Shown here one piece after another: positions 5,457 to 64,000 of a stretch of 64,000 nt of DNA. Numbering within the stretch: position 1 is the first letter of the stretch; each line of letters opens with the position of its first letter. The stretch covers positions 62,001-126,000 of the forward strand of contig NZ_JAOCCU010000014.1 in the NCBI RefSeq assembly GCF_029840635.1, in the 5' to 3' direction. The stretch is from Mitsuaria sp. GD03876. GTDB lineage: Bacteria > Pseudomonadota > Gammaproteobacteria > Burkholderiales > Burkholderiaceae_C. Made by a program: the position numbers and the translations under genes. The notes below the pieces were generated by a model, which was given only the letters and a program-made list of their open reading frames with translations, was not told the origin of the DNA and made no database searches.

Positions 5457-6584
5457 ATGCACGCCGCTCGCCCCTTCAACTTCTCCGCCGGTCCCGCCGC
5501 CCTCCCCCAGGAGGTCCTGAGCCAGGTGGCCGAGGAGATGCTGGACTGGCACGGCTCGGGGATGAGCGTCATGGAGATGAGCCACCGCGGCCGCGAGTTC
5601 ATCTCGATCTACGAAGCCGCCGAGGCCGACCTGCGCGAGCTGCTGCAGGTGCCGGCGAACTTCCGCATCCTGTTCATGCAGGGCGGCGGGCTCGGCGAGA
5701 ACGCGATCCTGCCGCTGAACCTGTCGCGCGGCGGCGCGGTCGACGTCGTGGTCACCGGCTCGTGGTCGAAGAAAAGCGCCGGCGAGGCCCGGCGCTACGC
5801 CGACGTGCGCATCGCCGCGGACGGCGGGGCGCTCGAGGGCGCCGGCGGCCGTTTCCTCGACATCCCCGATCCCGCGTCCTGGCAACTGCGCCGCGACGCC
5901 GCCTATGTCCACGTCTGCACCAACGAGACGATCGACGGCGTCGAGTTCCAGTCCCTGCCCGACCTGAAGGCGCTGGGCTGCGACGCGCCGCTGGCGATCG
6001 ACTTCTCGTCGCACGTGGTGTCGCGGCCGGTGGACTGGTCGCGCGTCGGCGTGGCCTTCGCCGGCGCGCAGAAGAACATCGGCCCGGCCGGCCTGACGCT
6101 GGTCGTCGTCCGCGAGGACCTGCTGGGCCACGCCCTGCCGATCTGCCCGTCCGCCTTCGACTACAAGACGGTGGCCGAGGCCCAGTCGATGTACAACACG
6201 CCGCCGACCTTCGGCATCTACGTCGCCGGCCTGGTGTTCCAGTGGCTCAAGCGCTTCGCCTACGGCGGCGCGACCGGCCTGGCGGCGATCGAGCGCCGCA
6301 ACATCGACAAGGCCGCGCTGCTGTATGCCGCGCTGGACGGCTCCTCCCTGTATGAGAACCGCGTGGCGGCGCATTGCCGCTCGCGGATGAACGTCCCGTT
6401 CTTCCTCCGCGACGAGCGTCTGAACGACGCCTTCCTGGCTGGCGCCAGGGAGCGGGGGCTGCTGCAACTCAAAGGCCACAAGTCGGTGGGCGGCATGCGG
6501 GCATCGATCTACAACGCGATGCCGCTGGAGGGCGTCCAAGCCCTGGTGAGCTACCTGAAGGACTTCGAGACCCGACATGGCTGA
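5457..6584 (+). CDS. serC: Phosphoserine aminotransferase
   Basis: PLP-dependent enzyme converting 3-phosphohydroxypyruvate plus glutamate to phosphoserine; it also serves pyridoxine synthesis. 375 residues, normal for SerC. It begins [13 protein letters not shown], the family hallmark, followed by [12 protein letters not shown]. The PLP lysine is in [12 protein letters not shown] (near residue 206), and the C-terminus has the [14 protein letters not shown] signature. It is separated from the DUF2059 gene by about 100 bp and overlaps pheA by eight bases, opening an amino-acid biosynthesis run serC-pheA-tyrA-aroA. Confidence 0.97.
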
Positions 6585-43464: not shown

Positions 43465-43567
43465 CGTCGCAACTGGAGCCGTCTCCTGGGCCATGCTGAA
43501 TGCGCTGAGCGCAGGCGCGGAAATCATCCGAAAGGAACTCGCGGCCTGAATCCGGGGTATCGGAAAT

Positions 43568-43594
43568 GCAAAACGCCCGGCTGGCCGGGCGGTT
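43568..43594 (+). terminator. Hairpin related to the DUF4148-array terminators
   Basis: CGCCCGG / CCGGGCG (43574-43580, 43585-43591) is preceded by GAAATGCAAAA, the same word that precedes the array terminator at 44342. It is not followed by a good T-run and no DUF4148 gene converges on it. It marks the left edge of the accessory array. Confidence 0.5.
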
Positions 43595-43682
43595 CATATG
43601 CGCTGAGGTCCGCTCAAGTTTCCCGCGCCACGCAGACGCGCGAGGTCGACAATGCGGGCACTTTCCTTCGACCTTGCGCTTC

Positions 43683-44297
43683 ATGCTGACTTGGCAACTC
43701 GAGGACCCCACGGACATCGCGGCGGCCAACAAATACGCCTTCTACAAGCCGTCGCCGGAGGTTCTCTCCAAGGTCGCGGTCGGCGAAGTCGTGAAGCTGA
43801 TTTTCCGAGGGGAAGGTGCCGACGCGAACGAGGTGCATGTCGAGCGCATGTGGGTGATCGTGGATGCCATCCATCCTGCCAATCGCTTCGAGGGTCGACT
43901 GGACAACGACCCTTACGAGATTCGCGGCCTGCAAGCTGGCGATCCGGTGAGCTTCGAGGCGCGGCACATCATCGATACCGCGCACCACGACCCCCACGAC
44001 CTCACTGCCAAGTACGTCAAGCGCGCCTTCGTCACTCATCGAATTCTTCGCGACGGGAAGGCCATCCGTTTCCTCTATCGCGAGGCGCCGGACGACGAGC
44101 AGGACAGCGGTTGGCGATTCACCGCTGGCGACGAGACCGACGAGTACATGGACGACGCGAACAACATCGGCTACGTGTCTCTCGGAATCGTGCTGTCGAA
44201 GGATGATTCGGTGCTTCACCTCCTGGACGAGGGTGAGGGTTCCGCGTTCAAGCGCGATGAGGCATCGGGGTGCTTCGTTCCGGATTTGCGCGGCTGA
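43683..44297 (+). CDS. DUF2314 + Imm33-type (DUF2185) immunity-like protein
   Basis: 204 residues from the ATG at 43683. The N-terminal half has ERMWVIVDAIHPANRFEGRLDNDPYEIRGLQAGDPVSF, a DUF2314-like pattern. The C-terminal half has DSGWRFTAGDETDEYMDDANNIGYVSLGIVLSKDDSVL, close to the DUF2185/Imm33 pattern in proteins encoded beside polymorphic toxins. No toxin is visible here. The gene converges on a DUF4148 gene across a bidirectional terminator, the layout repeated through this region. Immunity function is inferred from family association. Confidence 0.75.
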   Translation: MLTWQLEDPTDIAAANKYAFYKPSPEVLSKVAVGEVVKLIFRGEGADANEVHVERMWVIVDAIHPANRFEGRLDNDPYEIRGLQAGDPVSFEARHIIDTAHHDPHDLTAKYVKRAFVTHRILRDGKAIRFLYREAPDDEQDSGWRFTAGDETDEYMDDANNIGYVSLGIVLSKDDSVLHLLDEGEGSAFKRDEASGCFVPDLRG

Positions 44298-44341
44298 GTT
44301 TTCTCGCGCGGTTTCTGATCTGAGGCGCGCGTCAGAAATGC

Positions 44342-44372
44342 AAAACGCCCGGCAAGCCGGGCGTTCTGTTTG
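44342..44372. terminator. Bidirectional terminator between Imm33-like gene and DUF4148 copy A1
   Basis: AACGCCCGG-CAAG-CCGGGCGTT stem (44344-44365) flanked by A- and T-rich sides (CAAAA left, CTGTTTG right), so it can stop both convergent transcripts. Closely similar copies lie at 46425, 48367, 50451, 52393 and 61801. Confidence 0.8.
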
Positions 44373-44387
44373 GAGCGATCGAATCGA

Positions 44388-44720
44388 TCAGCGAGCGGCA
44401 ACCCCTTCGGTCATCGCGCCCTTGCCTTCCTTGGCGGCGAATTTCTGAACCAGCGCGGCGTACTTCGGCGAGGCCTTCAGCTCGGCATACCGAGCTTCAG
44501 CCTTGGCGCGTTGGCCAACGTTCAGCGCGAAGTCTTCGGTGCGGTCCGCCGCGGCTAGGCCGGACTCGCGATAGATCTCCAAGTCGGCCAGCACTTCAGC
44601 GCGGGACTTCTGGCTCGCGGTGATCGGGTCGAGGTGGCTGTAGCTCTGCGCGAAGGCCGACGAGCCCACGGCGGAAACAGCGATCAGGGCGGCGGCGATC
44701 AGGGTCTTGGTGGCGGTCAT
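44388..44720 (-). CDS. DUF4148 domain-containing exported protein, copy A1
   Basis: 110 residues. The signal peptide (TLIAAALIAVSAVGSSAFAQ) is followed by SYSHLDP, then the DUF4148 pattern SRAEVLADLEIYRESGLAAADR and ARYAELKASPKYAALV. The C-terminus reads GAMTEGVAAR. The Shine-Dalgarno is AAGGGAA. Small periplasmic proteins of this family are abundant in Burkholderiales and their function is unknown. In this window the family occurs five times intact plus one remnant, always on the minus strand and next to the same terminator. A1 differs from A2/A3 by one residue (Met for Val near the end) and by silent changes confined to its 3' two-thirds. Confidence 0.88.
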   Translation of the reverse strand: MTATKTLIAAALIAVSAVGSSAFAQSYSHLDPITASQKSRAEVLADLEIYRESGLAAADRTEDFALNVGQRAKAEARYAELKASPKYAALVQKFAAKEGKGAMTEGVAAR

Positions 44721-45025
44721 GATGGGTTCCCTTGAGAGAGCGGTTGAGGTCGGTGTCTGGTGTCGAGGGCGGTTTCGTTTGCCCATGTCGAAACAATAGA
44801 CGTCGACCTCATCCGCATAAATGCAGCCACCGCGAATGCGCCGTTGCTGGCGGAACCACAATCAGGGAATCCCTCGCGGATCCGCTTCGGAACGATTGCG
44901 GTCGTTCATCAGAACGGTGCCGATGGACCGCTCTCGGCCAGGAGTGGCCGGTCAACGAGGACTGCTTTGCTCCAGTTCAGCGCTTCTTTCTGGTTTGCTG
45001 ATCTCATGCTCAAATCCCGACCCAA
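44721..45025 (-). promoter_or_regulatory. Promoter/leader region of DUF4148 copy A1, shared among copies
   Basis: 305 bp without a supported gene. The ~100 bases next to the DUF4148 start are almost the same upstream of the type-A and type-B copies (also 46804-46905, 48747-48848, 50830-50931). They include the 5' leader and a TATTGT-like -10 near the TCGACGTCTATTGTTTCGAC block on the minus strand. Copy A3 keeps this leader but differs in its middle. The rest of the gap presumably holds the promoter of the divergent gene at 45026. Confidence 0.5.
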
Positions 45026-45412
45026 ATGAAAGACCGCATCAACTTCGTCGACGAGATTCTTGGCTTCATGTTCGAGCAAGGATTTGCTCGCAAATTCGAA
45101 GAGGTTGGGTCTCCCCCGAACGACCTCGATGTATGGTTTCGGAATGCACAGGTCTTCAGAACAGTGACAACCGAGAGGATGATCTCTAACGAGCAGCGTA
45201 TTCGCCTCTTGGTACTCATTGAGGCGATCCGCCTCGACGCTATGTACGGAGCGTTGCCTGGCGAACCGCAGGAGTTTGATCTGACCGCTTACGAGTTCTC
45301 AGAGGATCTGCTGCTCTACAAGGAGCGAGTGATTGAGGAGGTCTTGCGTCAAGAATCAGTCCGTTCGTCAAAGATTGACCCGTACCCGTCGGAAGGTACG
45401 CCACGCCATTGA
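45026..45412 (+). CDS. Unrecognised 128-residue protein, copy 1
   Basis: No family recognised. The protein is acidic, soluble and predicted mostly helical: INFVDEILGFMFEQGFARKF, DVWFRNAQVFRTV, ISNEQRIRLLVLIEAIRLDAMYG and FSEDLLLYKERVIEEVL. No signal peptide or membrane segment. Base composition is lower in GC than the housekeeping genes, suggesting acquisition. It starts opposite DUF4148 copy A1 and precedes a GNAT gene. Size, acidity and setting beside an Imm33-like gene would fit an immunity-type protein, but this is a guess. An identical copy lies at 49052. Confidence 0.6.
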   Translation: MKDRINFVDEILGFMFEQGFARKFEEVGSPPNDLDVWFRNAQVFRTVTTERMISNEQRIRLLVLIEAIRLDAMYGALPGEPQEFDLTAYEFSEDLLLYKERVIEEVLRQESVRSSKIDPYPSEGTPRH

Positions 45413-45547
45413 CTTGATGACCACACTCGTCACGCCGAATATCACCATCGTTTGTCTGCTGCTGGTTAACAGTGGACATCGACGAGCGGCTGGTTTCGAG
45501 TAGGCGATCTGCAGGTGTTTGAGGACGCGCCTTAGGTCCGGCTCCAG

Positions 45548-45580
45548 CCTGAAGCGGCGGCAGCATCGCAGCGAGAGCGG
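45548..45580 (+). repeat. Dispersed repeat, CCTGAAGCGGCGGCA type
   Basis: CCTGAAGCGGCGGCA-CATCGCAGCG followed by AGAGCGG occurs here and, with three differences, at 61739-61771 just after tetR; a shorter form (AGCCTGAAGCGGCTGC) lies at 46400-46415. All lie beside the DUF4148/terminator modules. The tandem copy is at 49574-49606. Confidence 0.6.
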
Positions 45581-45663
45581 CCCTGCCCTCGCTTGTCGAA
45601 AGCTCAATACTGTCAGCTCGAGCGCTCTCTATGATCGAGGCATCAGCGTAGTTTGAGGTGTTG

Positions 45664-46299
45664 ATGGCAGTTAGAAAGGTTGATCTTCCGCTCCTCAACG
45701 CATGGCTGTCCGCGCGGTCAATTGCGCGGCATCTGCCCCTACCGGTTTTCGATCACGGAGGACTGCGCGTCGATGTCAACTCGGAATCGGAGACCTCGCG
45801 GTGGGTGTTCACCGAGGTTGGATGCGGACTTCGACAATTGGCGCGAGCCATCGACCGACCACGCTACTTCCTCAAACTTTGTGGCACGTCCGCTGACCTG
45901 AGAGCTGCGCTGCCGGCAGGTTGGGAGATTCAGTCCCCTGGATACTTCATGCATGCGGACAAGCAGATGCCTGTGCGATCTCTGCCGTTGGGATATAGCG
46001 TCAAAGTCGTCCGCGAAGACTCTGTGCTGCGCGCCCGGATCACGACGCGGACGGGTGAGCTCGCCGCCAGCGGCTATGCCGTCGAAACGTCGGAGGTGTT
46101 CATCTACGATCGAATCGTGACCGAGGCGAAACATCGCCGTCGAGGGCTAGGGGCGTGTCTGATGCAGTCGCTCCAGGGCGCGCGGAAGAATGTCGCCATA
46201 CCCGAACTGCTCGTTGCAACTGAAGATGGCAGAGCCCTCTATTTGACGCTCGGTTGGGAGACCGTTTCCCCTTACACCACGGCGACGATTGCGCCGTAG
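45664..46299 (+). CDS. GNAT-family N-acetyltransferase, copy 1
   Basis: 211 residues from the ATG at 45664, preceded by TTTGAGG. The C-terminal half has the acetyl-CoA-binding pattern: VFIYDRIVTEAKHRRRGLG (the RRxGxG/A loop) followed by CLMQSLQ, and LLVATEDGRALYLTLGWE, the usual end of the fold. The N-terminal ~100 residues do not match a family I know (WLSARSIARHLPLPV, LAGWEI-like region). The substrate is unknown. GNAT proteins in such arrays can be toxins or detoxifiers, but neither is shown here. It ends at a bidirectional terminator shared with DUF4148 copy B1; identical copy at 49690. Confidence 0.78.
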   Translation: MAVRKVDLPLLNAWLSARSIARHLPLPVFDHGGLRVDVNSESETSRWVFTEVGCGLRQLARAIDRPRYFLKLCGTSADLRAALPAGWEIQSPGYFMHADKQMPVRSLPLGYSVKVVREDSVLRARITTRTGELAASGYAVETSEVFIYDRIVTEAKHRRRGLGACLMQSLQGARKNVAIPELLVATEDGRALYLTLGWETVSPYTTATIAP

Positions 46300-46424
46300 C
46301 TACCACGGGAACGTCGGCATCGAGCGTTTTCCATCGCGGTCCGCTGGCGGCGTGGGGTCCAAGCAGCGACCGAAGTCGAGTGAGCCGACTTCCGCTCCCA
46401 GCCTGAAGCGGCTGCCTCAAACGC

Positions 46425-46455
46425 AAAACGCCCGTCAAGCCGGGCGTTTTGTTTG
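46425..46455. terminator. Bidirectional terminator between GNAT and DUF4148 copy B1
   Basis: Perfect 10-bp stem AAAACGCCCG (46425-46434) / CGGGCGTTTT (46441-46450), loop TCAAGC, followed by GTTTG. It works in both directions by symmetry. Confidence 0.85.
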
Positions 46456-46470
46456 CAGCGATCGAATCGA

Positions 46471-46803
46471 TCAGCGGGCGGCAACCCCTTCGGTCATCGC
46501 GCCCTTGCCTTCCTTGGCTGCGAATTTCTGAACCAGCGCCGCGTACCTCGGCGAGGCCTTCAGCTCGGCATACCGGGCTTCGGCCTTGACGCGCTGATTG
46601 ATCTCGAGCGACGAATCTTCCGTGCGATCCACCGCGGCCAGGCCGGACTCGCGATAGATCTCCAGATCAGCCAGCACTTCGGCGCGGGACTTCTGGCTCG
46701 GGGTGATCGGGTCCAGGTGGCTGTAGCTCTGCGCGAAGGTCGACGTGCCCACGGCGGAAACAGCGATCAGGGCGGCGGCGATCAGGGTCTTGGTGGCGGT
46801 CAT
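46471..46803 (-). CDS. DUF4148 domain-containing exported protein, copy B1
   Basis: 110 residues, type B. The signal peptide differs slightly from type A (SAVGTSTFAQ), and the mature part has PITPSQKSRAEVLADLEIYR, TEDSSLEINQRVKAEARY and ASPRYAALVQ. It shares most residues with type A, including the C-terminal GAMTEGVAAR of A1, so A and B are older paralogs, unlike the identical B1/B2 pair. It converges on the GNAT gene and diverges from the 186-residue protein. Confidence 0.88.
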   Translation of the reverse strand: MTATKTLIAAALIAVSAVGTSTFAQSYSHLDPITPSQKSRAEVLADLEIYRESGLAAVDRTEDSSLEINQRVKAEARYAELKASPRYAALVQKFAAKEGKGAMTEGVAAR

Positions 46804-47060
46804 GATGGGTGCCTTTGAGAGAGCGGTTGAGGTCGGTGTCTGGTGTCGAGGGCGGTGTCGTTTGCCCATGTCGGAACAATAGATGTCGACCTCATCCGCA
46901 TAAATGGGCCGCCAGCGAATGCGCTGTTCCCAGAGAATCAACAATCCAAGCACCGAGCGCCGCTTCACCAGAATCGACGTCTCTTCAATCGAATGGCACC
47001 CATGCGAAATGCAAGAACGCCCGGCACGCAGGTCGATCTGGAATCGAAGGAATGCTGCCC

Positions 47061-47621
47061 ATGAGCGTCACATCACCGATCACTCCATGGCCTCTCACAC
47101 GCCTCGACGGCGCGTTCATCACGGGATGGTCGGGACTGGAGATGGCGCTCGATGGCGGAAATGCCGTGGTGACGGACGAGACTGCGGTCACCGGTTTCTT
47201 CGGCGATACCCCGGTCGTCTGGGAGCATCCAGACGTCCCGTACCGACAGTTCGTGAGCCTTGAAATCGAAGTGGACTCCGGAGTTCGCTTTCAGCTGTTT
47301 GGCGACGATTCGATCGACGGGTCGAGCGGCTTGCTCCTCATGGAGGTGGTCCGTGAGCCGGTCCGTATCCCGGAAACGGTTGGCGAGATTTATCGGACTC
47401 GGACTTTGGGCTGCCTGCCGACAGGGACGGCAACGCTCACCGTGCTTGGGCAGAGCACGACCGGGGCCATCACGGATGTTGCGTTGAACTTCGAGGGGCA
47501 GGTATTGCGCCTGATAGCCGGCGAGGTACATCCACGCCAGGATGGCACCTTCCACATCGCGATTCCAGACGAGTCGGTACTTGTTCAACTGAATGGTGCA
47601 CGACCCGACCCCGCCAGTTGA
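47061..47621 (+). CDS. Unrecognised 186-residue protein, copy 1
   Basis: No family recognised. The start at 47061 is set by AAGGA nine bases upstream; an in-frame ATG at 47052 is too close to that site. The protein is soluble, acidic and predicted mostly beta (FITGWSGLEMALDGGNAVVT, RFQLFGDDSID, TLTVLGQSTTGAITDVALNF, RQDGTFHIAIPDESVLVQLNG). No export signal. Its length, fold type and partner gene would suit an immunity-like protein; this is inference. The following gene begins 103 bp downstream in the same direction. Identical copy at 51087. Confidence 0.6.
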   Translation: MSVTSPITPWPLTRLDGAFITGWSGLEMALDGGNAVVTDETAVTGFFGDTPVVWEHPDVPYRQFVSLEIEVDSGVRFQLFGDDSIDGSSGLLLMEVVREPVRIPETVGEIYRTRTLGCLPTGTATLTVLGQSTTGAITDVALNFEGQVLRLIAGEVHPRQDGTFHIAIPDESVLVQLNGARPDPAS

Positions 47622-47724
47622 TTCGAGGCGGCCGGATGCTGGGCAGTGGCTTTCTTGGATCTCTGTAAGAACACCTTCGATCGCGAGCTTCGCGACGCAT
47701 GGATAACTGAACCCTGGGGGGAAC

Positions 47725-48342
47725 ATGGGACTGGCTTTGCAAGTTGGCGGTTTCGACGACGAGGACCAGGAGATCTTCGATCCGCTGTCCGCGGCGTTGG
47801 TCGAAGCAGGACTTCCGCCGTATGAGGAACCGCGAAGTCCTGGCGCCGAGGCGGTTTATTCCTGCGGCATGTGGGGCTACTCCGGCCTGCACACGCTGAG
47901 GAGAGTGGCGGCCTATCTTGGCGAGGGCTTGCCAATTCCCGGACCTTCTCGAGAGCATGCGGCTTCCGACCCCGTCCTGGAGGGCTTCTACGACCTGATG
48001 GCCCCGGGATTCGAGCATCTGGTGCTGCACAGCGACTGCGAAGGCTTCTACGCGCCGATCCGCTTTGAAGAAGTCATTTTCCCAAGCGACGAACTCAAGG
48101 TTCCGGGTGGCATGGTGGGATCCGCCGTGAAACTGCTGGAAGAGTGCCTGCGCCTGGCCCAGTGGTTGGAACTGCCGACAGACATCGACGCTGAAGGCGA
48201 CGAAGTCTGGGCGGCGGCGGAAACGCCGGTGACCGAAGGTCCGAAGTGGAAACGTTATGGCGTGGAATCCTTCACCTGCATCCGGCTTATTCGAGCCTGC
48301 GAGGCCTCCATCAAGAGCGGCGCGGCGCTGGTGTTCTGCTGA
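47725..48342 (+). CDS. Unrecognised 205-residue protein, copy 1
   Basis: No named family recalled with confidence. It begins MGLALQVGGFDDEDQEIFDP; the middle has GMWGYSGLHTLRRVAAYL and HLVLHSDCEGFYAPIRFEEV, and the end has GSAVKLLEECLRLAQWLELP. No signal peptide or membrane segment. The HSDCEGFY segment with a GS...LLEE helix recalls small proteins encoded beside polymorphic toxins, but I cannot name one. It converges on DUF4148 copy A2 at a bidirectional terminator. Identical copy at 51751. Confidence 0.62.
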   Translation: MGLALQVGGFDDEDQEIFDPLSAALVEAGLPPYEEPRSPGAEAVYSCGMWGYSGLHTLRRVAAYLGEGLPIPGPSREHAASDPVLEGFYDLMAPGFEHLVLHSDCEGFYAPIRFEEVIFPSDELKVPGGMVGSAVKLLEECLRLAQWLELPTDIDAEGDEVWAAAETPVTEGPKWKRYGVESFTCIRLIRACEASIKSGAALVFC

Positions 48343-48366
48343 AGTCGTTGACGCAAAGGGGGAACG

Positions 48367-48397
48367 CAAAACGCCCGGCAAGCCGGGCGTTCTGTTT
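48367..48397. terminator. Bidirectional terminator between 205-residue gene and DUF4148 copy A2
   Basis: AACGCCCGG-CAAG-CCGGGCGTT stem (48370-48391) with CTGTTTG on the right and GCAAA on the left; identical copy at 52393. Confidence 0.8.
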
Positions 48398-48413
48398 GGG
48401 GCGATCGAATCGA

Positions 48414-48746
48414 TCAGCGGGCGGCGACGCCTTCGGTCACGGCGCCCTTGCCTTCCTTGGCGGCGAATTTCTGAACCAGCGCCGCGTACTTCGGCGAGGC
48501 CTTCAGCTCGGCATACCGCGCTTCGGCCTTGGCGCGTTGGCCAACGTTCAGCGCGAAGTCTTCGGTGCGGTCCGCCGCCGCCAGGCCGGATTCGCGATAG
48601 ATCTCCAGATCAGCCAGCACTTCAGCGCGGGACTTCTGGCTCGCGGTGATCGGGTCGAGGTGGCTGTAGCTCTGCGCGAAGGCCGACGAGCCCACGGCGG
48701 AAACAGCGATCAGGGCGGCGGCGATCAGGGTCTTGGTGGCGGTCAT
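48414..48746 (-). CDS. DUF4148 domain-containing exported protein, copy A2 (chimeric copy)
   Basis: 110 residues, same product as A3 (C-terminal GAVTEGVAAR). Its 3' part (48414-48612) matches copy A3 base for base where compared, while its 5' part and leader match copy A1. The switch lies in the 144-bp block common to all three A copies (48613-48756). This is the expected product of unequal crossing-over between A1 and A3. Signal peptide and DUF4148 motifs are intact, so it is probably functional. Confidence 0.9.
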   Translation of the reverse strand: MTATKTLIAAALIAVSAVGSSAFAQSYSHLDPITASQKSRAEVLADLEIYRESGLAAADRTEDFALNVGQRAKAEARYAELKASPKYAALVQKFAAKEGKGAVTEGVAAR

Positions 48747-49051
48747 GATGGGTTCCCTTGAGAGAGCGGTTGAGGTCGGTGTCTGGTGTCGAGGGCGGTT
48801 TCGTTTGCCCATGTCGAAACAATAGACGTCGACCTCATCCGCATAAATGCAGCCACCGCGAATGCGCCGTTGCTGGCGGAACCACAATCAGGGAATCCCT
48901 CGCGGATCCGCTTCGGAACGATTGCGGTCGTTCATCAGAACGGTGCCGATGGACCGCTCTCGGCCAGGAGTGGCCGGTCAACGAGGACTGCTTTGCTCCA
49001 GTTCAGCGCTTCTTTCTGGTTTGCTGATCTCATGCTCAAATCCCGACCCAA

Positions 49052-49438
49052 ATGAAAGACCGCATCAACTTCGTCGACGAGATTCTTGGCTTCATGTTCG
49101 AGCAAGGATTTGCTCGCAAATTCGAAGAGGTTGGGTCTCCCCCGAACGACCTCGATGTATGGTTTCGGAATGCACAGGTCTTCAGAACAGTGACAACCGA
49201 GAGGATGATCTCTAACGAGCAGCGTATTCGCCTCTTGGTACTCATTGAGGCGATCCGCCTCGACGCTATGTACGGAGCGTTGCCTGGCGAACCGCAGGAG
49301 TTTGATCTGACCGCTTACGAGTTCTCAGAGGATCTGCTGCTCTACAAGGAGCGAGTGATTGAGGAGGTCTTGCGTCAAGAATCAGTCCGTTCGTCAAAGA
49401 TTGACCCGTACCCGTCGGAAGGTACGCCACGCCATTGA
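49052..49438 (+). CDS. Unrecognised 128-residue protein, copy 2
   Basis: Product identical to the protein at 45026-45412: an acidic, helical, soluble protein of unknown family. The upstream 305-bp gap (48747-49051) is also the same, so expression signals are duplicated with the gene. Confidence 0.6.
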   Translation: MKDRINFVDEILGFMFEQGFARKFEEVGSPPNDLDVWFRNAQVFRTVTTERMISNEQRIRLLVLIEAIRLDAMYGALPGEPQEFDLTAYEFSEDLLLYKERVIEEVLRQESVRSSKIDPYPSEGTPRH

Positions 49439-49689
49439 CTTGATGACCACACTCGTCACGCCGAATATCACCATCGTTTGTCTGCTGCTGGTTAACAGTG
49501 GACATCGACGAGCGGCTGGTTTCGAGTAGGCGATCTGCAGGTGTTTGAGGACGCGCCTTAGGTCCGGCTCCAGCCTGAAGCGGCGGCAGCATCGCAGCGA
49601 GAGCGGCCCTGCCCTCGCTTGTCGAAAGCTCAATACTGTCAGCTCGAGCGCTCTCTATGATCGAGGCATCAGCGTAGTTTGAGGTGTTG

Positions 49690-50325
49690 ATGGCAGTTAG
49701 AAAGGTTGATCTTCCGCTCCTCAACGCATGGCTGTCCGCGCGGTCAATTGCGCGGCATCTGCCCCTACCGGTTTTCGATCACGGAGGACTGCGCGTCGAT
49801 GTCAACTCGGAATCGGAGACCTCGCGGTGGGTGTTCACCGAGGTTGGATGCGGACTTCGACAATTGGCGCGAGCCATCGACCGACCACGCTACTTCCTCA
49901 AACTTTGTGGCACGTCCGCTGACCTGAGAGCTGCGCTGCCGGCAGGTTGGGAGATTCAGTCCCCTGGATACTTCATGCATGCGGACAAGCAGATGCCTGT
50001 GCGATCTCTGCCGTTGGGATATAGCGTCAAAGTCGTCCGCGAAGACTCTGTGCTGCGCGCCCGGATCACGACGCGGACGGGTGAGCTCGCCGCCAGCGGC
50101 TATGCCGTCGAAACGTCGGAGGTGTTCATCTACGATCGAATCGTGACCGAGGCGAAACATCGCCGTCGAGGGCTAGGGGCGTGTCTGATGCAGTCGCTCC
50201 AGGGCGCGCGGAAGAATGTCGCCATACCCGAACTGCTCGTTGCAACTGAAGATGGCAGAGCCCTCTATTTGACGCTCGGTTGGGAGACCGTTTCCCCTTA
50301 CACCACGGCGACGATTGCGCCGTAG
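49690..50325 (+). CDS. GNAT-family N-acetyltransferase, copy 2
   Basis: Product identical to the GNAT at 45664-46299, including the HRRRGLG acetyl-CoA loop. The duplicate also keeps the same start context and downstream terminator, so the gene dosage is two in this window. Confidence 0.78.
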   Translation: MAVRKVDLPLLNAWLSARSIARHLPLPVFDHGGLRVDVNSESETSRWVFTEVGCGLRQLARAIDRPRYFLKLCGTSADLRAALPAGWEIQSPGYFMHADKQMPVRSLPLGYSVKVVREDSVLRARITTRTGELAASGYAVETSEVFIYDRIVTEAKHRRRGLGACLMQSLQGARKNVAIPELLVATEDGRALYLTLGWETVSPYTTATIAP

Positions 50326-50450
50326 CTACCACGGGAACGTCGGCATCGAGCGTTTTCCATCGCGGTCCGCTGGCGGCGTGGGGTCCAAGCAGCGACCGAA
50401 GTCGAGTGAGCCGACTTCCGCTCCCAGCCTGAAGCGGCTGCCTCAAACGC

Positions 50451-50481
50451 AAAACGCCCGTCAAGCCGGGCGTTTTGTTTG
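50451..50481. terminator. Bidirectional terminator between GNAT copy 2 and DUF4148 copy B2
   Basis: Same 10-bp AAAACGCCCG/CGGGCGTTTT hairpin as at 46425-46455. Confidence 0.85.
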
Positions 50482-50496
50482 CAGCGATCGAATCGA

Positions 50497-50829
50497 TCAG
50501 CGGGCGGCAACCCCTTCGGTCATCGCGCCCTTGCCTTCCTTGGCTGCGAATTTCTGAACCAGCGCCGCGTACCTCGGCGAGGCCTTCAGCTCGGCATACC
50601 GGGCTTCGGCCTTGACGCGCTGATTGATCTCGAGCGACGAATCTTCCGTGCGATCCACCGCGGCCAGGCCGGACTCGCGATAGATCTCCAGATCAGCCAG
50701 CACTTCGGCGCGGGACTTCTGGCTCGGGGTGATCGGGTCCAGGTGGCTGTAGCTCTGCGCGAAGGTCGACGTGCCCACGGCGGAAACAGCGATCAGGGCG
50801 GCGGCGATCAGGGTCTTGGTGGCGGTCAT
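50497..50829 (-). CDS. DUF4148 domain-containing exported protein, copy B2
   Basis: Identical in product to copy B1 (46471-46803): type-B signal peptide and TEDSSLEINQRVKAEARY. It lies wholly inside the second repeat unit. Confidence 0.88.
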   Translation of the reverse strand: MTATKTLIAAALIAVSAVGTSTFAQSYSHLDPITPSQKSRAEVLADLEIYRESGLAAVDRTEDSSLEINQRVKAEARYAELKASPRYAALVQKFAAKEGKGAMTEGVAAR

Positions 50830-51086
50830 GATGGGTGCCTTTGAGAGAGCGGTTGAGGTCGGTGTCTGGTGTCGAGGGCGGTGTCGTTTGCCCATGTCGG
50901 AACAATAGATGTCGACCTCATCCGCATAAATGGGCCGCCAGCGAATGCGCTGTTCCCAGAGAATCAACAATCCAAGCACCGAGCGCCGCTTCACCAGAAT
51001 CGACGTCTCTTCAATCGAATGGCACCCATGCGAAATGCAAGAACGCCCGGCACGCAGGTCGATCTGGAATCGAAGGAATGCTGCCC

Positions 51087-51647
51087 ATGAGCGTCACATC
51101 ACCGATCACTCCATGGCCTCTCACACGCCTCGACGGCGCGTTCATCACGGGATGGTCGGGACTGGAGATGGCGCTCGATGGCGGAAATGCCGTGGTGACG
51201 GACGAGACTGCGGTCACCGGTTTCTTCGGCGATACCCCGGTCGTCTGGGAGCATCCAGACGTCCCGTACCGACAGTTCGTGAGCCTTGAAATCGAAGTGG
51301 ACTCCGGAGTTCGCTTTCAGCTGTTTGGCGACGATTCGATCGACGGGTCGAGCGGCTTGCTCCTCATGGAGGTGGTCCGTGAGCCGGTCCGTATCCCGGA
51401 AACGGTTGGCGAGATTTATCGGACTCGGACTTTGGGCTGCCTGCCGACAGGGACGGCAACGCTCACCGTGCTTGGGCAGAGCACGACCGGGGCCATCACG
51501 GATGTTGCGTTGAACTTCGAGGGGCAGGTATTGCGCCTGATAGCCGGCGAGGTACATCCACGCCAGGATGGCACCTTCCACATCGCGATTCCAGACGAGT
51601 CGGTACTTGTTCAACTGAATGGTGCACGACCCGACCCCGCCAGTTGA
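51087..51647 (+). CDS. Unrecognised 186-residue protein, copy 2
   Basis: Identical in product to 47061-47621: a beta-rich soluble protein of unknown family, with the same Shine-Dalgarno spacing. The second member of each repeat unit's downstream gene pair follows at 51751. Confidence 0.6.
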   Translation: MSVTSPITPWPLTRLDGAFITGWSGLEMALDGGNAVVTDETAVTGFFGDTPVVWEHPDVPYRQFVSLEIEVDSGVRFQLFGDDSIDGSSGLLLMEVVREPVRIPETVGEIYRTRTLGCLPTGTATLTVLGQSTTGAITDVALNFEGQVLRLIAGEVHPRQDGTFHIAIPDESVLVQLNGARPDPAS

Positions 51648-51750
51648 TTCGAGGCGGCCGGATGCTGGGCAGTGGCTTTCTTGGATCTCTGTAAGAACAC
51701 CTTCGATCGCGAGCTTCGCGACGCATGGATAACTGAACCCTGGGGGGAAC

Positions 51751-52368
51751 ATGGGACTGGCTTTGCAAGTTGGCGGTTTCGACGACGAGGACCAGGAGAT
51801 CTTCGATCCGCTGTCCGCGGCGTTGGTCGAAGCAGGACTTCCGCCGTATGAGGAACCGCGAAGTCCTGGCGCCGAGGCGGTTTATTCCTGCGGCATGTGG
51901 GGCTACTCCGGCCTGCACACGCTGAGGAGAGTGGCGGCCTATCTTGGCGAGGGCTTGCCAATTCCCGGACCTTCTCGAGAGCATGCGGCTTCCGACCCCG
52001 TCCTGGAGGGCTTCTACGACCTGATGGCCCCGGGATTCGAGCATCTGGTGCTGCACAGCGACTGCGAAGGCTTCTACGCGCCGATCCGCTTTGAAGAAGT
52101 CATTTTCCCAAGCGACGAACTCAAGGTTCCGGGTGGCATGGTGGGATCCGCCGTGAAACTGCTGGAAGAGTGCCTGCGCCTGGCCCAGTGGTTGGAACTG
52201 CCGACAGACATCGACGCTGAAGGCGACGAAGTCTGGGCGGCGGCGGAAACGCCGGTGACCGAAGGTCCGAAGTGGAAACGTTATGGCGTGGAATCCTTCA
52301 CCTGCATCCGGCTTATTCGAGCCTGCGAGGCCTCCATCAAGAGCGGCGCGGCGCTGGTGTTCTGCTGA
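51751..52368 (+). CDS. Unrecognised 205-residue protein, copy 2
   Basis: Identical in product to 47725-48342 (HSDCEGFY-containing protein of unknown family). It converges on DUF4148 copy A3. Confidence 0.62.
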   Translation: MGLALQVGGFDDEDQEIFDPLSAALVEAGLPPYEEPRSPGAEAVYSCGMWGYSGLHTLRRVAAYLGEGLPIPGPSREHAASDPVLEGFYDLMAPGFEHLVLHSDCEGFYAPIRFEEVIFPSDELKVPGGMVGSAVKLLEECLRLAQWLELPTDIDAEGDEVWAAAETPVTEGPKWKRYGVESFTCIRLIRACEASIKSGAALVFC

Positions 52369-52392
52369 AGTCGTTGACGCAAAGGGGGAACG

Positions 52393-52423
52393 CAAAACGC
52401 CCGGCAAGCCGGGCGTTCTGTTT
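52393..52423. terminator. Bidirectional terminator between 205-residue gene copy 2 and DUF4148 copy A3
   Basis: Same hairpin as at 48367-48397. Confidence 0.8.
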
Positions 52424-52439
52424 GGGGCGATCGAATCGA

Positions 52440-52772
52440 TCAGCGGGCGGCGACGCCTTCGGTCACGGCGCCCTTGCCTTCCTTGGCGGCGAATTTCTGA
52501 ACCAGCGCCGCGTACTTCGGCGAGGCCTTCAGCTCGGCATACCGCGCTTCGGCCTTGGCGCGTTGGCCAACGTTCAGCGCGAAGTCTTCGGTGCGGTCCG
52601 CCGCCGCCAGGCCGGATTCGCGATAGATCTCCAGATCAGCCAGCACTTCAGCGCGGGACTTCTGGCTCGCGGTGATCGGGTCGAGGTGGCTGTAGCTCTG
52701 CGCGAAGGCCGACGAGCCCACGGCGGAAACAGCGATCAGGGCGGCGGCGATCAGGGTCTTGGTGGCGGTCAT
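52440..52772 (-). CDS. DUF4148 domain-containing exported protein, copy A3
   Basis: 110 residues, identical to A2 in product. Its upstream leader is related to, but not the same as, that of A1/A2: CCTTTGAG instead of CCCTTGAG, and a replaced block around 52812-52836. A3 is therefore the original right-hand copy, with its own flanking sequence. Homology to the A1 upstream region fades near 52945. Confidence 0.88.
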   Translation of the reverse strand: MTATKTLIAAALIAVSAVGSSAFAQSYSHLDPITASQKSRAEVLADLEIYRESGLAAADRTEDFALNVGQRAKAEARYAELKASPKYAALVQKFAAKEGKGAVTEGVAAR

Positions 52773-53084
52773 GATGGGTTCCTTTGAGAGAGCGGTTGAG
52801 GTCGGTGTCTGGGTTCGTTGCCGGCTTCGTTTGCCGTTGTCGAAACAATAGACGTCGACCCCATCCGCATAAATGCAGCCACCGCGAATGCGCTGTTGCT
52901 GGCGGAACAACAATCAGGGAATCCCTCGCAGATCCGCTGCGCAGCGACAGCGGATGCCTGGCTACGATTCGAATCTCGGCTTTGAATGCATCGGATGTAT
53001 CCCGCCCCTAGCGAGATCGAGCTGTCATTCATCGAGCGTGCATACGCTCGCTTGGGCAACGCCTCGCATTGGCTGGGCCCGAGC
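52773..53084. other. Gap between DUF4148 A3 and the small lipoprotein gene
   Basis: About 170 bases are the A3 leader and decaying homology to the A1 upstream region. The remainder (about 52945-53084) holds no supported gene; an ATG at 52986 opens a frame beginning MHRMYPAPSEIEL, but the frame runs antisense through the lipoprotein gene and looks accidental, or is the stub of a lost gene. Confidence 0.5.
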
Positions 53085-53231
53085 TCAGGAGGTCTGCTCA
53101 CAACCCGAAGGCGCGTAGCCGAGCTCTCTCTGAATCTGAGGCGGATCGCAAGACTTCTTGTCTGCCGGTGCGGCACAGCCGGCAAGCGCGACGAGCGCTG
53201 CCAGGAGAAAAATGGATGGGTACGTCCTCAT
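53085..53231 (-). CDS. Small lipoprotein, 48 residues
   Basis: Too short for routine ORF calling. The ATG at 53231 has an excellent AAGGAG seven bases upstream. The product starts MRTYPSIFLLAALVALAGC, a complete lipoprotein signal with lipobox LAGC; the mature part is CAAPADKKSCDPPQIQRELG followed by YAPSGCEQTS, with two further cysteines that could form a disulfide. No homologue recognised. It stands alone between DUF4148 A3 and the SDR gene on the same strand. The DNA between its stop and the DUF4148 gene shows no other gene. Confidence 0.65.
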   Translation of the reverse strand: MRTYPSIFLLAALVALAGCAAPADKKSCDPPQIQRELGYAPSGCEQTS

Positions 53232-53312
53232 GGGTGAGCTCCTTCAAGGTCTGGTCGCGATGGGGCGTCGTACGGCAATGACTTGCCGAAGCGTGTCCGT
53301 ACCGGCTTGGGC

Positions 53313-54119
53313 TCAGCCCAGGCCGAGCTGCTTGCGCAGGCTCTTGTCGACCGGGCCGGAGGGCATGAAGCGGCGCAGCTTGCTCAGCAGGCTGGCCTGG
53401 CCCGGGGGCGTGCGTCGCATCCGCCAGGTCCCGAACGCCGCATCGACGATGGTGAGGGCGACGACCGTCGGGTCATCGCCGCGATTGACATTGGCGGAGA
53501 ACGACTGCGTAACCCGCTGGCGTTCCTTGTCGTAGGCATTGATCAACGCGGCCACGTGAGGCGAGTTGGCATCGAGGCTGGTCTTCGTGTACGAAGGCTG
53601 GACCAGGGTCACGCGGATGCCGAACTGGCGCACCTCGTGATCCAACGATTCCGACAGCCCTTCGATGGCGTGCTTGGATGCCGCGTAGAGACCCATGTAG
53701 GGTCCCGGCAGGAAACCCAGCACGGAGCTGATGTTGATGATCCTGCCCTGCCGCCGCTCTCGCATGTGCGGCAACACCGCCTGCGAGACTCTGAGAACAC
53801 CCAGCACGTTGGTATCGAACAGGGCGGCCGCCTCGGCAGGCATGGTCTCCTCCACCGCACCCATCATGTTGACGCCGGCGCTGTTGACGAGGACATCGAC
53901 CCGCCCAGCGCGGCTGATCACTGTCTGAACGCCAGCAAGCACCGAGGTATCGCTGCGAACGTCCATCTCGACCAGTTCGACGCCGGCGACTGGGGTGGCT
54001 TTCTGGAGGTTGCGCACGGTGCCGAAGACGCGGCTGCCGCGCGAGAGGAACTTCTTGGCTGTCGCCAGCCCAATGCCGGAGGACACGCCGGTGATCAGGA
54101 CAACAGGTTGATTCGTCAT
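53313..54119 (-). CDS. Short-chain dehydrogenase/reductase (classical SDR)
   Basis: 268 residues from the ATG at 54119. The cofactor motif is [20 protein letters not shown], with NSAGVNM in place of the usual NNAG. The catalytic residues are in [11 protein letters not shown] (Ser) and [19 protein letters not shown] (YxxxK). The C-terminus is basic. It is the last gene of the block behind the RND pump, 184 bp after the FAD oxidoreductase, so it may be transcribed with it. The substrate is unknown. Confidence 0.88.
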
Positions 54120-61800: not shown

Positions 61801-61832
61801 GCAAAACGCCCGGCAAGCCGGGCGTTCTGTTT
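61801..61832. terminator. DUF4148-type bidirectional terminator after tetR
   Basis: The same GCAAAACGCCCGGCAAGCC-type hairpin and CTGTTTGGAGCGATCGAAT context as the array terminators, nine kilobases from copy A3. It can stop tetR on the plus strand and belongs to the DUF4148 remnant that follows. Confidence 0.8.
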
Positions 61833-61848
61833 GGAGCGATCGAATCGA

Positions 61849-61926
61849 TCAGCGGGCGGCGACGCCTTCGGTCACTGCGGCCTTGGCGCGTTGGCCGCCA
61901 TTCAGCGAGAAGTCTTCGGTGCGATC
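61849..61926 (-). pseudogene. DUF4148 gene remnant with in-frame internal deletion
   Basis: Reading the minus strand gives GDRTEDFSLNGGQRAKA joined directly to AVTEGVAAR and stop. Relative to A2 this lacks the 23-residue block from EARYAEL to KEGKG, and everything 5' of GDRTED (signal peptide and first repeat) is absent. The frame is kept across the deletion. An ATG 27 bases upstream is in frame but gives only a ~35-residue peptide without export signal, so I call it a pseudogene. It is the sixth DUF4148 sequence in the window. Confidence 0.8.
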
Positions 61927-63330: not shown

Positions 63331-64000
63331 ATGAAGCGCTACGAAGTCCTCGCCGACGACTTGGCGGCGTCCATCGCCGCGGGGCAGCTGCGCCCCGGAG
63401 ACCGTCTCCCCTCGGTCCGCGAAGCGAGCAAGGACCGCGGCGTCAGCCCCTCCACCGTCTTCGAGGCCTACTACCTGCTCGAGGCCCGCGGCCTGATCGA
63501 GGCGCGGCCGCGGTCCGGCTACTTCGTGAGCCAGGCCGCGATCCCGCACCCAGAGCCCCACGCCTCGGACCCGCTGGCCGAGGAGCGCAGCGTCGAGGTG
63601 TCGGAACTCGTGTTCCAGGTGCTTGGGCTGTCGCGCAACCGGGCCGTCGTGCCGCTGGGCTCGGCCTTCCCGAGCCCGACCTTGTTCCCTCTGGACAAGC
63701 TGGCCCTGGCGCTTGGCAAGGCCGCGCGCGGGCTGGACCCGTGGCGCACGGTCGAAGACCTGTCGCCCGGCAGCGCCGAGCTGCGGCGCCAGATCGGCCT
63801 GCGCTACCTCGGCGCCGGATGCAAGGTCGACGCGGACGAGATCGTCGTGACCAACGGCGCGATGGAGGCCCTGAACCTGTGCCTGGAGGCGGTCACGAAG
63901 CCCGGCGACCTCGTCGCCATCGAGTCGCCGACCTTCTACGGTGCCTTGCAGGCGCTGGAGCGACGCGGGCTCAAGGCGGTCGAGGTGGCCACCCATGCGC
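63331..64000 (+). CDS. MocR-type regulator: GntR winged helix fused to aminotransferase fold (3' end beyond window)
   Basis: At least 223 residues; the gene runs off base 64000. The N-terminal GntR helix-turn-helix reads LAASIAAGQLRPGDRLPSVREASKDRGVS followed by TVFEAYYLLEARGLIEARPRSGYFV. From about residue 100 begins the fold-type I aminotransferase domain (LGSAFPSPTLFPLDKLALAL, YLGAGCKVDADEIVVTNGAMEALNLCLEAV). It resembles PdxR/YdcR-type MocR proteins, which use PLP as cofactor or effector. An ACTGT/ACAGT inverted pair (63275-63291) lies upstream in the divergent region. The target is unknown. Confidence 0.88.
   Translation, partial: MKRYEVLADDLAASIAAGQLRPGDRLPSVREASKDRGVSPSTVFEAYYLLEARGLIEARPRSGYFVSQAAIPHPEPHASDPLAEERSVEVSELVFQVLGLSRNRAVVPLGSAFPSPTLFPLDKLALALGKAARGLDPWRTVEDLSPGSAELRRQIGLRYLGAGCKVDADEIVVTNGAMEALNLCLEAVTKPGDLVAIESPTFYGALQALERRGLKAVEVATHA

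What the first reader, a model, noticed from the sequence alone, without database searches (positions are those of the whole stretch)
44587..52782. Recent 4,026-bp direct tandem duplication generated inside DUF4148 genes
44587-48756 reappears as 48613-52782 with no difference in any stretch I compared, and every gene product in both units is identical. The boundaries fall inside type-A DUF4148 genes. The middle copy (A2) matches A3 on its left and A1 on its right, with the switch in a 144-bp block common to all three. That is the signature of unequal crossing-over between A1 and an ancestral A3, without any mobile element. Six genes, including a GNAT and two unknown families, are thereby doubled.
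Basis: partly seen in the sequence, partly recalled or inferred. Interest (0 to 1): 0.78.

Follow-up and report, generated by a model that had tools for sequence, protein, structure and literature searches.

The report
Tandem gene duplication in soil bacterium
A 4-kb stretch of six small genes appears twice in a row in this draft Roseateles-type genome, most likely by ordinary recombination between two copies of a small gene that flank it, though the draft sequence alone cannot prove that there are two copies.

Summary
44587-48756 and 48613-52782 are identical over 4,170 bp (0 mismatches, offset 4,026), and the next base differs on both sides. A2 equals A3 left of a 144-bp block shared by A1, A2 and A3, and equals A1 right of it: the expected product of unequal homologous exchange between two DUF4148 genes. 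Among 18 window genes scanned around it, none is a transposase or integrase. Plasmid and phage collections gave no match.

One caution is new. One-unit and two-unit versions of the locus have identical k-mers at the eight tested sizes from 31 to 145. The genome is a 94-contig draft with a single 16S gene, in a 5.7-kb contig. Copy number therefore rests on depth or linking data that I could not see. A 1.16-kb exact tuf repeat was placed twice, so some linking information probably existed.

The unit lies in a low-GC island of rare genes beside an Imm33 gene. Three related species also carry DUF4148 genes in pairs with other genes between them.

The mechanism is textbook: new member of a known kind, low interest. 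A modest lead: DUF4148 genes may anchor a variable gene array.

The parts
43683..44297 (+). Imm33 + DUF2314 domain protein (204 aa), left neighbour of the array, outside the duplicated unit
   Evidence: Pfam Imm33 99.3 bits (cut-off 25.4), DUF2314 24.4 (cut-off 22); start
44388..44720 (-). DUF4148 gene A1 (110 aa; signal-peptide-like start, by eye)
   Evidence: Pfam PF13663 29.7 bits, cut-off 27; 14 of 333 nt differ from A3
44587..48612 (.). unit 1 of the tandem duplication (4,026 bp)
45026..45412 (+). 128-aa ORF, GC 0.527; ORFan, may not be a gene
   Evidence: found in 1 of 299 family genomes (own only); GC; not called by the codon-usage gene caller
45664..46299 (+). GNAT-like protein (211 aa)
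   Evidence: Acetyltransf_7 23.5 bits, below its cut-off of 27; relatives in 12 of 299 family genomes incl. own; not called
46471..46803 (-). DUF4148 gene B1 (110 aa)
   Evidence: Pfam 29.5 bits; 32 of 333 nt differ from A1
47061..47621 (+). 186-aa protein of unknown family; a relative forms the C-terminal half of a protein with an AAA_33 N-terminal half in G256
   Evidence: 3 of 299 family genomes incl. own; not called
47725..48342 (+). 205-aa protein of unknown family; relatives in three genomes of one other genus lie 79-90 bp downstream of an alpha-2-macroglobulin gene or a close homologue of one
   Evidence: 5 of 299 family genomes incl. own; called only its last 114 residues
48414..48746 (-). 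DUF4148 gene A2, hybrid: A3-like left part, A1-like right part
48613..48756 (.). 144-bp block identical in A1, A2 and A3: inferred exchange tract
48613..52638 (.). unit 2 of the tandem duplication (4,026 bp)
49052..49438 (+). second copy of 128-aa ORF
49690..50325 (+). second copy of GNAT
50497..50829 (-). DUF4148 gene B2, identical to B1
51087..51647 (+). second copy of 186-aa gene
51751..52368 (+). second copy of 205-aa gene
52440..52772 (-). DUF4148 gene A3
44344..44365 (.). palindrome AACGCCCGGC-NN-GCCGGGCGTT at the 3' end of A1, terminator-like by eye; also at 46427 (1 mismatch), 48370, 50453 (1 mismatch), 52396, and without a full DUF4148 gene at 43572 (1 mismatch) and 61805
   Evidence: 7 matches with up to 2 mismatches, mean 0.00 in shuffles. 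Against the terminator name: the scan over 43500-53400 found 4 terminator-like sites (8.2 expected) and, of these palindromes, only the copy at 43574-43591
61801..61926 (-). decayed DUF4148 remnant about 9 kb right of the array

Best explanation
A real tandem duplication made by homologous recombination. In the ancestor one block (A1 - 128 aa - GNAT - B - 186 aa - 205 aa - A3) lay between two DUF4148 copies with a 144-bp identical stretch. Misaligned pairing of A3 on one sister chromosome with A1 on the other, followed by exchange inside that stretch, gave a second block and a hybrid A2. Shown: exact repeat, hybrid A2, bounded exchange tract, no transposase or integrase among the flanking genes scanned. 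Inferred: that the exchange was RecA-type and that the second unit exists in cells. The unit could be lost, or amplified further, by recombination anywhere in its 4.17 kb of identity. Any effect would be gene dosage; no selected function is shown.
For: Exact 4,170-bp repeat. A2 is A3-like left and A1-like right of a 144-bp block common to all. A1 and A3 are older, diverged duplicates (14 of 333 nt differ). No transposase or integrase family among 18 window genes between 39.8 and 62.8 kb scanned with Pfam. No match in plasmids or phages. The four own DUF4148 copies put in the tree (A1, A3, B1, C9) form one group, support 95/100, so this subtype multiplied in this lineage. Two tuf genes with a 1,163-bp exact match are both placed inside contig C4, so the assembly probably bridged repeats of more than 1 kb. 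Precedents: RecA-dependent tandem duplication between IS copies in B. thailandensis (PMC9946442, passages); esaG expansions and mosaics (PMC9484751, abstract and passages).
Against: The two-unit and one-unit versions have the same k-mer set at all eight tested sizes from 31 to 145, and the only 16S gene found sits in a 5,689-bp contig, so two units are not proven. No sister strain of the same species was available. No read depth could be seen. The gene caller did not call three of the cargo reading frames, so 'six genes doubled' is an upper count.
Confidence: 0.68

Rival explanations
1. Assembly artefact. The chromosome has one unit; the assembler walked the loop created by the 144-bp A1/A3 identity twice. 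The hybrid A2 then exists only in the assembly.
For: k-mer sets of the one- and two-unit versions are identical at the eight tested sizes from 31 to 145. 94 contigs, with the only 16S gene in one 5,689-bp contig. Zero differences in 4,170 bp.
Against: A 1,163-bp exact tuf repeat was placed twice, so linking information longer than 1 kb was probably used. Paired reads across 144 bp would normally prevent a false second pass (general knowledge).
Confidence: 0.2
2. Real duplication, but made at a replication fork (template switch or fork repair) or through an excised circle that reinserted, instead of by exchange between sister chromosomes.
For: These would give the same hybrid junction (inference). 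A contig of a relative carrying a DUF4148 gene has identical 83-bp ends (L036), which would fit a circle or a tandem repeat.
Against: Nothing in the sequence needs it; L036 may be a binning contaminant (its DUF4148 region is 76-84% identical over the long matches in that genome's other loci).
Confidence: 0.08
3. More than two units exist and the assembly shows two. The locus would then be an amplified array.
For: The k-mer argument should apply to any number of units (inference; only one and two were compared).
Against: No direct evidence.
Confidence: 0.04

Closest known systems
esaG / tipC immunity-gene arrays (PMC9484751; abstract and passages seen)
   Same: Tandem paralogues with shared homology blocks recombine, giving expansion, loss and mosaic genes
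   Different: Here the recombining paralogues are DUF4148 genes, not immunity genes, and unrelated orphan genes lie between them
RecA-dependent 208.6-kb duplication between two IS copies in Burkholderia thailandensis (PMC9946442; passages seen)
   Same: Directly oriented tandem duplication by homologous recombination between direct repeats, with a unique junction
   Different: There the repeats are IS elements (1,336 bp of homology) and the duplication is experimentally shown; here the repeats are host genes (144 bp identical) and nothing has been tested in cells
Gene duplication by unequal exchange between direct repeats in bacteria generally (recalled textbook knowledge)
   Same: Anatomy of repeat - unit - hybrid repeat - unit - repeat
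   Different: No difference in kind

Membership tests
Tandem duplication by homologous recombination between direct repeats | Direct repeats flank the unit, with a tract identical between them | tested here: met
   A1 and A3 share 144 bp exactly
Tandem duplication by homologous recombination between direct repeats | Middle repeat is a hybrid with exchanged flanking markers | tested here: met
   22 A1/A2 differences left of the block (44330-44586) and none right; 0 A2/A3 differences left and 12 in the next 130 bp right
Tandem duplication by homologous recombination between direct repeats | No transposase, integrase or element end at the boundaries | tested here: met
   0 of 18 window genes with such a Pfam family (19 scans, one gene scanned out of frame and again); no PHROG hit for 6 proteins. 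Not every ORF was scanned
Tandem duplication by homologous recombination between direct repeats | Junction seen in reads, or doubled depth | not testable with these tools
   No reads; one search shows that the first k-mer specific to two units appears at 146
Tandem duplication by homologous recombination between direct repeats | Dependence on RecA | not testable with these tools
   Needs an experiment
DUF4148 (PF13663) | Score over Pfam gathering cut-off (27 bits) | tested here: met
   A 29.7, B 29.5
Immunity-gene array of the esaG type | The repeated genes are immunity genes paired with a toxin family | tested here: not met
   Repeated genes are DUF4148; the four cargo proteins have no immunity-family hit; only the neighbour outside the unit is Imm33
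Composite transposon or integron cassette array | Transposase/integrase gene in or next to the array | tested here: not met
   (18 genes); attachment sites were not modelled

The most novel reading that the evidence does not exclude
In Roseateles-type bacteria the DUF4148 gene with its palindromic 3' end acts as a homology anchor for a variable gene array: rare, low-GC genes, at times beside immunity-type genes, sit between DUF4148 copies and are gained, lost and multiplied by recombination between the copies, without an integrase or transposase. The present duplication would be one such event caught in the act.
Probability: 0.15. Interest if true: 0.5.

Novelty: new member of a known kind. 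Interest (0 to 1): 0.22.

Why it matters
If real, it is a clean example of host genes, not mobile elements, serving as the repeats for a bacterial duplication, in a locus where copy number may differ between cells. It also gives a caution: an exact tandem repeat joined by a short shared block in a draft genome can have a copy number that the assembly graph cannot determine. The wider lead, DUF4148 genes as anchors of variable gene arrays, could be tested in strains of one species.

Tried and rejected
Structure prediction of the 186-aa and 205-aa proteins from single sequences failed (mean pLDDT 35.5 and 39.3); no fold search was made. GNAT against solved structures gave only weak GNAT-domain hits (8 at E up to 0.1, best 0.0027). 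Weak NCBIfam hits to aminoglycoside acetyltransferases are far below cut-off (18.8 of 200 bits), so no resistance claim is made. Rfam gave nothing at gathering scores and PADLOC nothing for 7 proteins. A pattern search for the 205-aa protein in genome contigs confirmed no relative, although the whole-genome search later found relatives in four other genomes.

Both flanks were searched in the 16 genomes of the genus (own included). I fetched and read only three of the places found: G002 (L113), G006 (L114) and G008 (L115). The SDR lies next to an efflux-pump-like gene in G002 and G006 (by eye). tblastn with the five DUF4148 proteins gave no hit at E up to 1 in L114 and L115, and one weak hit in L113 (37% over 82 aa, E 0.013) inside another called gene, probably chance. 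So no array was seen in those three; the other places were not read.

The idea that the cargo is a set of immunity genes was not upheld: only the neighbour outside the unit is Imm33. Around the ten relatives whose surroundings were listed (read by eye), no recognised toxin gene was seen, except that one 186-aa relative is fused to an AAA_33 half with a sub-threshold Zeta_toxin hit (13.4 of 22.3 bits). That DUF4148 genes in general sit beside low-GC genes is only weakly supported: of 16 DUF4148 genes outside the array, flank GC is at least 0.03 below the locus mean for 3 (values in the full report).
Full report
Observation. Window 44587-48756 and 48613-52782 are identical at all 4,170 positions, offset 4,026, and the match ends at a differing base on both sides. 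The repeat search shows one family of five 300-nt copies, all in the DUF4148 genes, spaced 2,083 and 1,943 bp alternately. The order is Imm33 - A1 - 128 aa - GNAT - B1 - 186 aa - 205 aa - A2 - 128 aa - GNAT - B2 - 186 aa - 205 aa - A3 - SDR. The DUF4148 genes read leftwards, the others in the array rightwards. A and B both pass the PF13663 cut-off. A simple codon-usage gene caller found the five DUF4148 genes but not the 128-aa, GNAT and 186-aa frames, and only the last 114 residues of the 205-aa frame. These frames are atypical for this genome. GNAT, 186 aa and 205 aa have relatives elsewhere and are probably genes; the 128-aa frame is uncertain.

Hybrid copy. In A1 coordinates, A1 and A2 differ at 22 positions in 44330-44586 and nowhere in the compared stretch to the right. 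A2 and A3 do not differ from 44330 to 44730, then differ at 12 positions in 44731-44860 and at 50 of the next 100. The switch lies in the 144 bp common to all three. A1 and A3 differ at 14 of 333 coding positions and A and B at 31-32, so the A1-B-A3 arrangement is older than the exact duplication.

Mobile elements. Of 18 window genes scanned with Pfam between 39.8 and 62.8 kb (19 scans), none belongs to a transposase, integrase or phage family. Six proteins have no PHROG hit. The 4,026-bp unit has no match in 72,556 plasmid and 50,697 phage records with blastn at E up to 1e-5. The only tRNA found in the window is at 63718.

Can the assembly be trusted? The genome is 6.36 Mb in 94 contigs. A single 16S gene was found, in a 5,689-bp contig, which reads as a collapsed rRNA operon and a short-read-type assembly (inference). 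That contig's first 220 bp matched nowhere else in the genome, so this end shows no k-mer overlap that would help identify the assembler. The two tuf genes, with a 1,163-bp exact match, are both placed inside contig C4, so linking information of more than 1 kb was probably used. I removed one unit from the window's own sequence and compared k-mer sets. At k = 31, 55, 77, 99, 127, 141, 144 and 145 the one-unit and two-unit versions are indistinguishable; at k = 146 one k-mer differs, and at 250, 105 differ. So the 144-bp block makes a loop in an assembly graph of such k whether the cell has one unit or more, and the number of units must come from depth or linking data. I put the chance of an artefact at about one in five.

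Which organism. The closest named loci of this DUF4148 subtype are in Roseateles noduli, R. chitinivorans, two Mitsuaria genomes and a Rubrivivax MAG (14 loci in all). Contig lengths shared between tie these to G005, G011, G006, G004 and G010. The window is therefore from a Roseateles/Mitsuaria-type bacterium (inference).

Where the cargo comes from. In a 104-kb stretch of contig C6, 17 of 205 windows of 2 kb have GC below 0.63, and all 17 start between window 43501 and 51501. Within unit 1 and A2 the DUF4148 genes have GC 0.655-0.673 and the cargo 0.527-0.620. In 299 genomes drawn from the family (own included), relatives were found in 1 genome for the 128-aa protein, 12 for GNAT, 3 for the 186-aa protein and 5 for the 205-aa protein (E up to 0.001). 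These are rare, presumably acquired genes. Three of the 205-aa relatives, all in genus g147, lie 79-90 bp downstream of a very long gene on the same strand. That of L076 is a bacterial alpha-2-macroglobulin (bMG3, bMG10, A2M_BRD, MG2 and A2M over cut-off), and those of L075 and L077 match it at 90-91% identity.

DUF4148 arrays elsewhere. Three relatives carry DUF4148 genes of this subtype in pairs: G005 (L029, L030), G008 (L031, L032) and G010 (L034), in all five loci with copies of an 83-aa gene; the one copy tested has no Pfam family. One locus can be compared across species by its neighbours: G010 has a single DUF4148 gene there (L035), while G005 and G008 have two, with an 83-aa gene and an acetyltransferase frame between them (L030 Acetyltransf_3 54.0 bits; L031 a shorter frame, 26.8 bits, cut-off 25.4; that the loci correspond was judged by eye from neighbours). 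That is what gain or loss of cargo by exchange between copies would look like, though other histories fit. In L034 the frames between copies differ again (HEAT_2 43.1 bits, DUF3658 27.8 bits, both over cut-off, and one without a family). A tree of 19 DUF4148 genes (A2 and B2 left out as identical to A3 and B1; more distant family members such as those in L040, L042, L044 and L048 left out) puts the four own copies in one group (95/100) and G005 L030a/b together (99/96). Two sets of positional counterparts from G005, G008 and G010 group at 88/87 and 82/99, below the starred level; 9 of 16 inner branches are open. So DUF4148 genes of this subtype multiplied separately in this lineage. By Pfam the own genome has further DUF4148 genes on contigs C34, C12, C14 and C10.

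Against a general rule. Flank GC (1.5 kb each side) minus locus GC for the 16 DUF4148 genes outside the array is: L029 -0.002 and +0.007, L030 -0.003 and -0.009, L031 -0.017 and -0.017, L032 -0.009 and -0.034, L034 -0.044 and -0.027, L035 -0.004, L036 +0.001 (low throughout, 0.628), L037 +0.012, L038 -0.021, L039 -0.014, L041 -0.039. So 3 of 16 are at least 0.03 below their locus: L032 second copy, L034 first copy, L041. Low-GC cargo beside DUF4148 is clear here and in L034, and not general.

Literature. 'DUF4148' occurs in 9 papers of the library (listing with abstract starts only), one of them on a Burkholderia pseudomallei virulence factor; 0 papers hold it together with 'gene duplication' and 'Burkholderia'. 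The mechanism has direct precedents: PMC9484751 (abstract and passages) and PMC9946442 (passages). The searches (10 of 16 papers listed) showed no paper on DUF4148-mediated duplication; that is a statement about those listings only. Searches were wider searches of which 12 of 62, 12 of 49 and 8 of 80 papers were listed.

Verdict. The sequence observation is exact and the exchange between A1 and A3 is the best reading, conditional on two units being real. The mechanism is well known, so the interest is low. The lead worth keeping is the DUF4148-anchored variable array.

Noticed in passing
L036:1-83 and 5729-5811: A 5,811-bp contig of a Rubrivivax MAG (SEFA01000152.1) has identical 83-bp ends and carries a DUF4148 gene, the 83-aa gene and low-GC frames: either a second tandem duplication of a DUF4148 unit (5,728 bp) or a circle, possibly a binning contaminant.
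   Followed up: partly
L029, L030, L031, L032, L034, L036: An 83-aa protein family of unknown function (no Pfam hit for the one tested) accompanies DUF4148 genes in three relatives; in the ten own stretches searched by tblastn the best hit is weak (L042, 31% identity, E 0.004).
   Followed up: partly
61801-61926, and contig C6:126773-126848 just beyond the window: Decayed DUF4148 remnants right of the array, the first with the palindromic 3' end still intact.
   Followed up: partly
43572-43593: Palindrome of the DUF4148 3' end (1 mismatch) without a DUF4148 gene, between the SLAC1-family gene and the Imm33 gene; possibly the scar of a lost copy.
   Followed up: no
45545-45558, 46399-46412 and their second copies: A 14-bp motif CAGCCTGAAGCGGC occurs 4 times in the window, all in the array (0.12 expected with up to 1 mismatch); stretches of 29-43 bp around the first one have similar matches in G003, G011 and G014.
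   Followed up: partly
L079:8384-9415: A relative of the 186-aa protein forms the C-terminal half of a 343-aa protein whose N-terminal half matches AAA_33 (49.7 bits) and, below cut-off, Zeta_toxin.
   Followed up: partly
L075, L076, L077: Relatives of the 205-aa protein lie directly downstream of an alpha-2-macroglobulin gene or its close homologue in three genomes of one genus, a possible functional link.
   Followed up: partly
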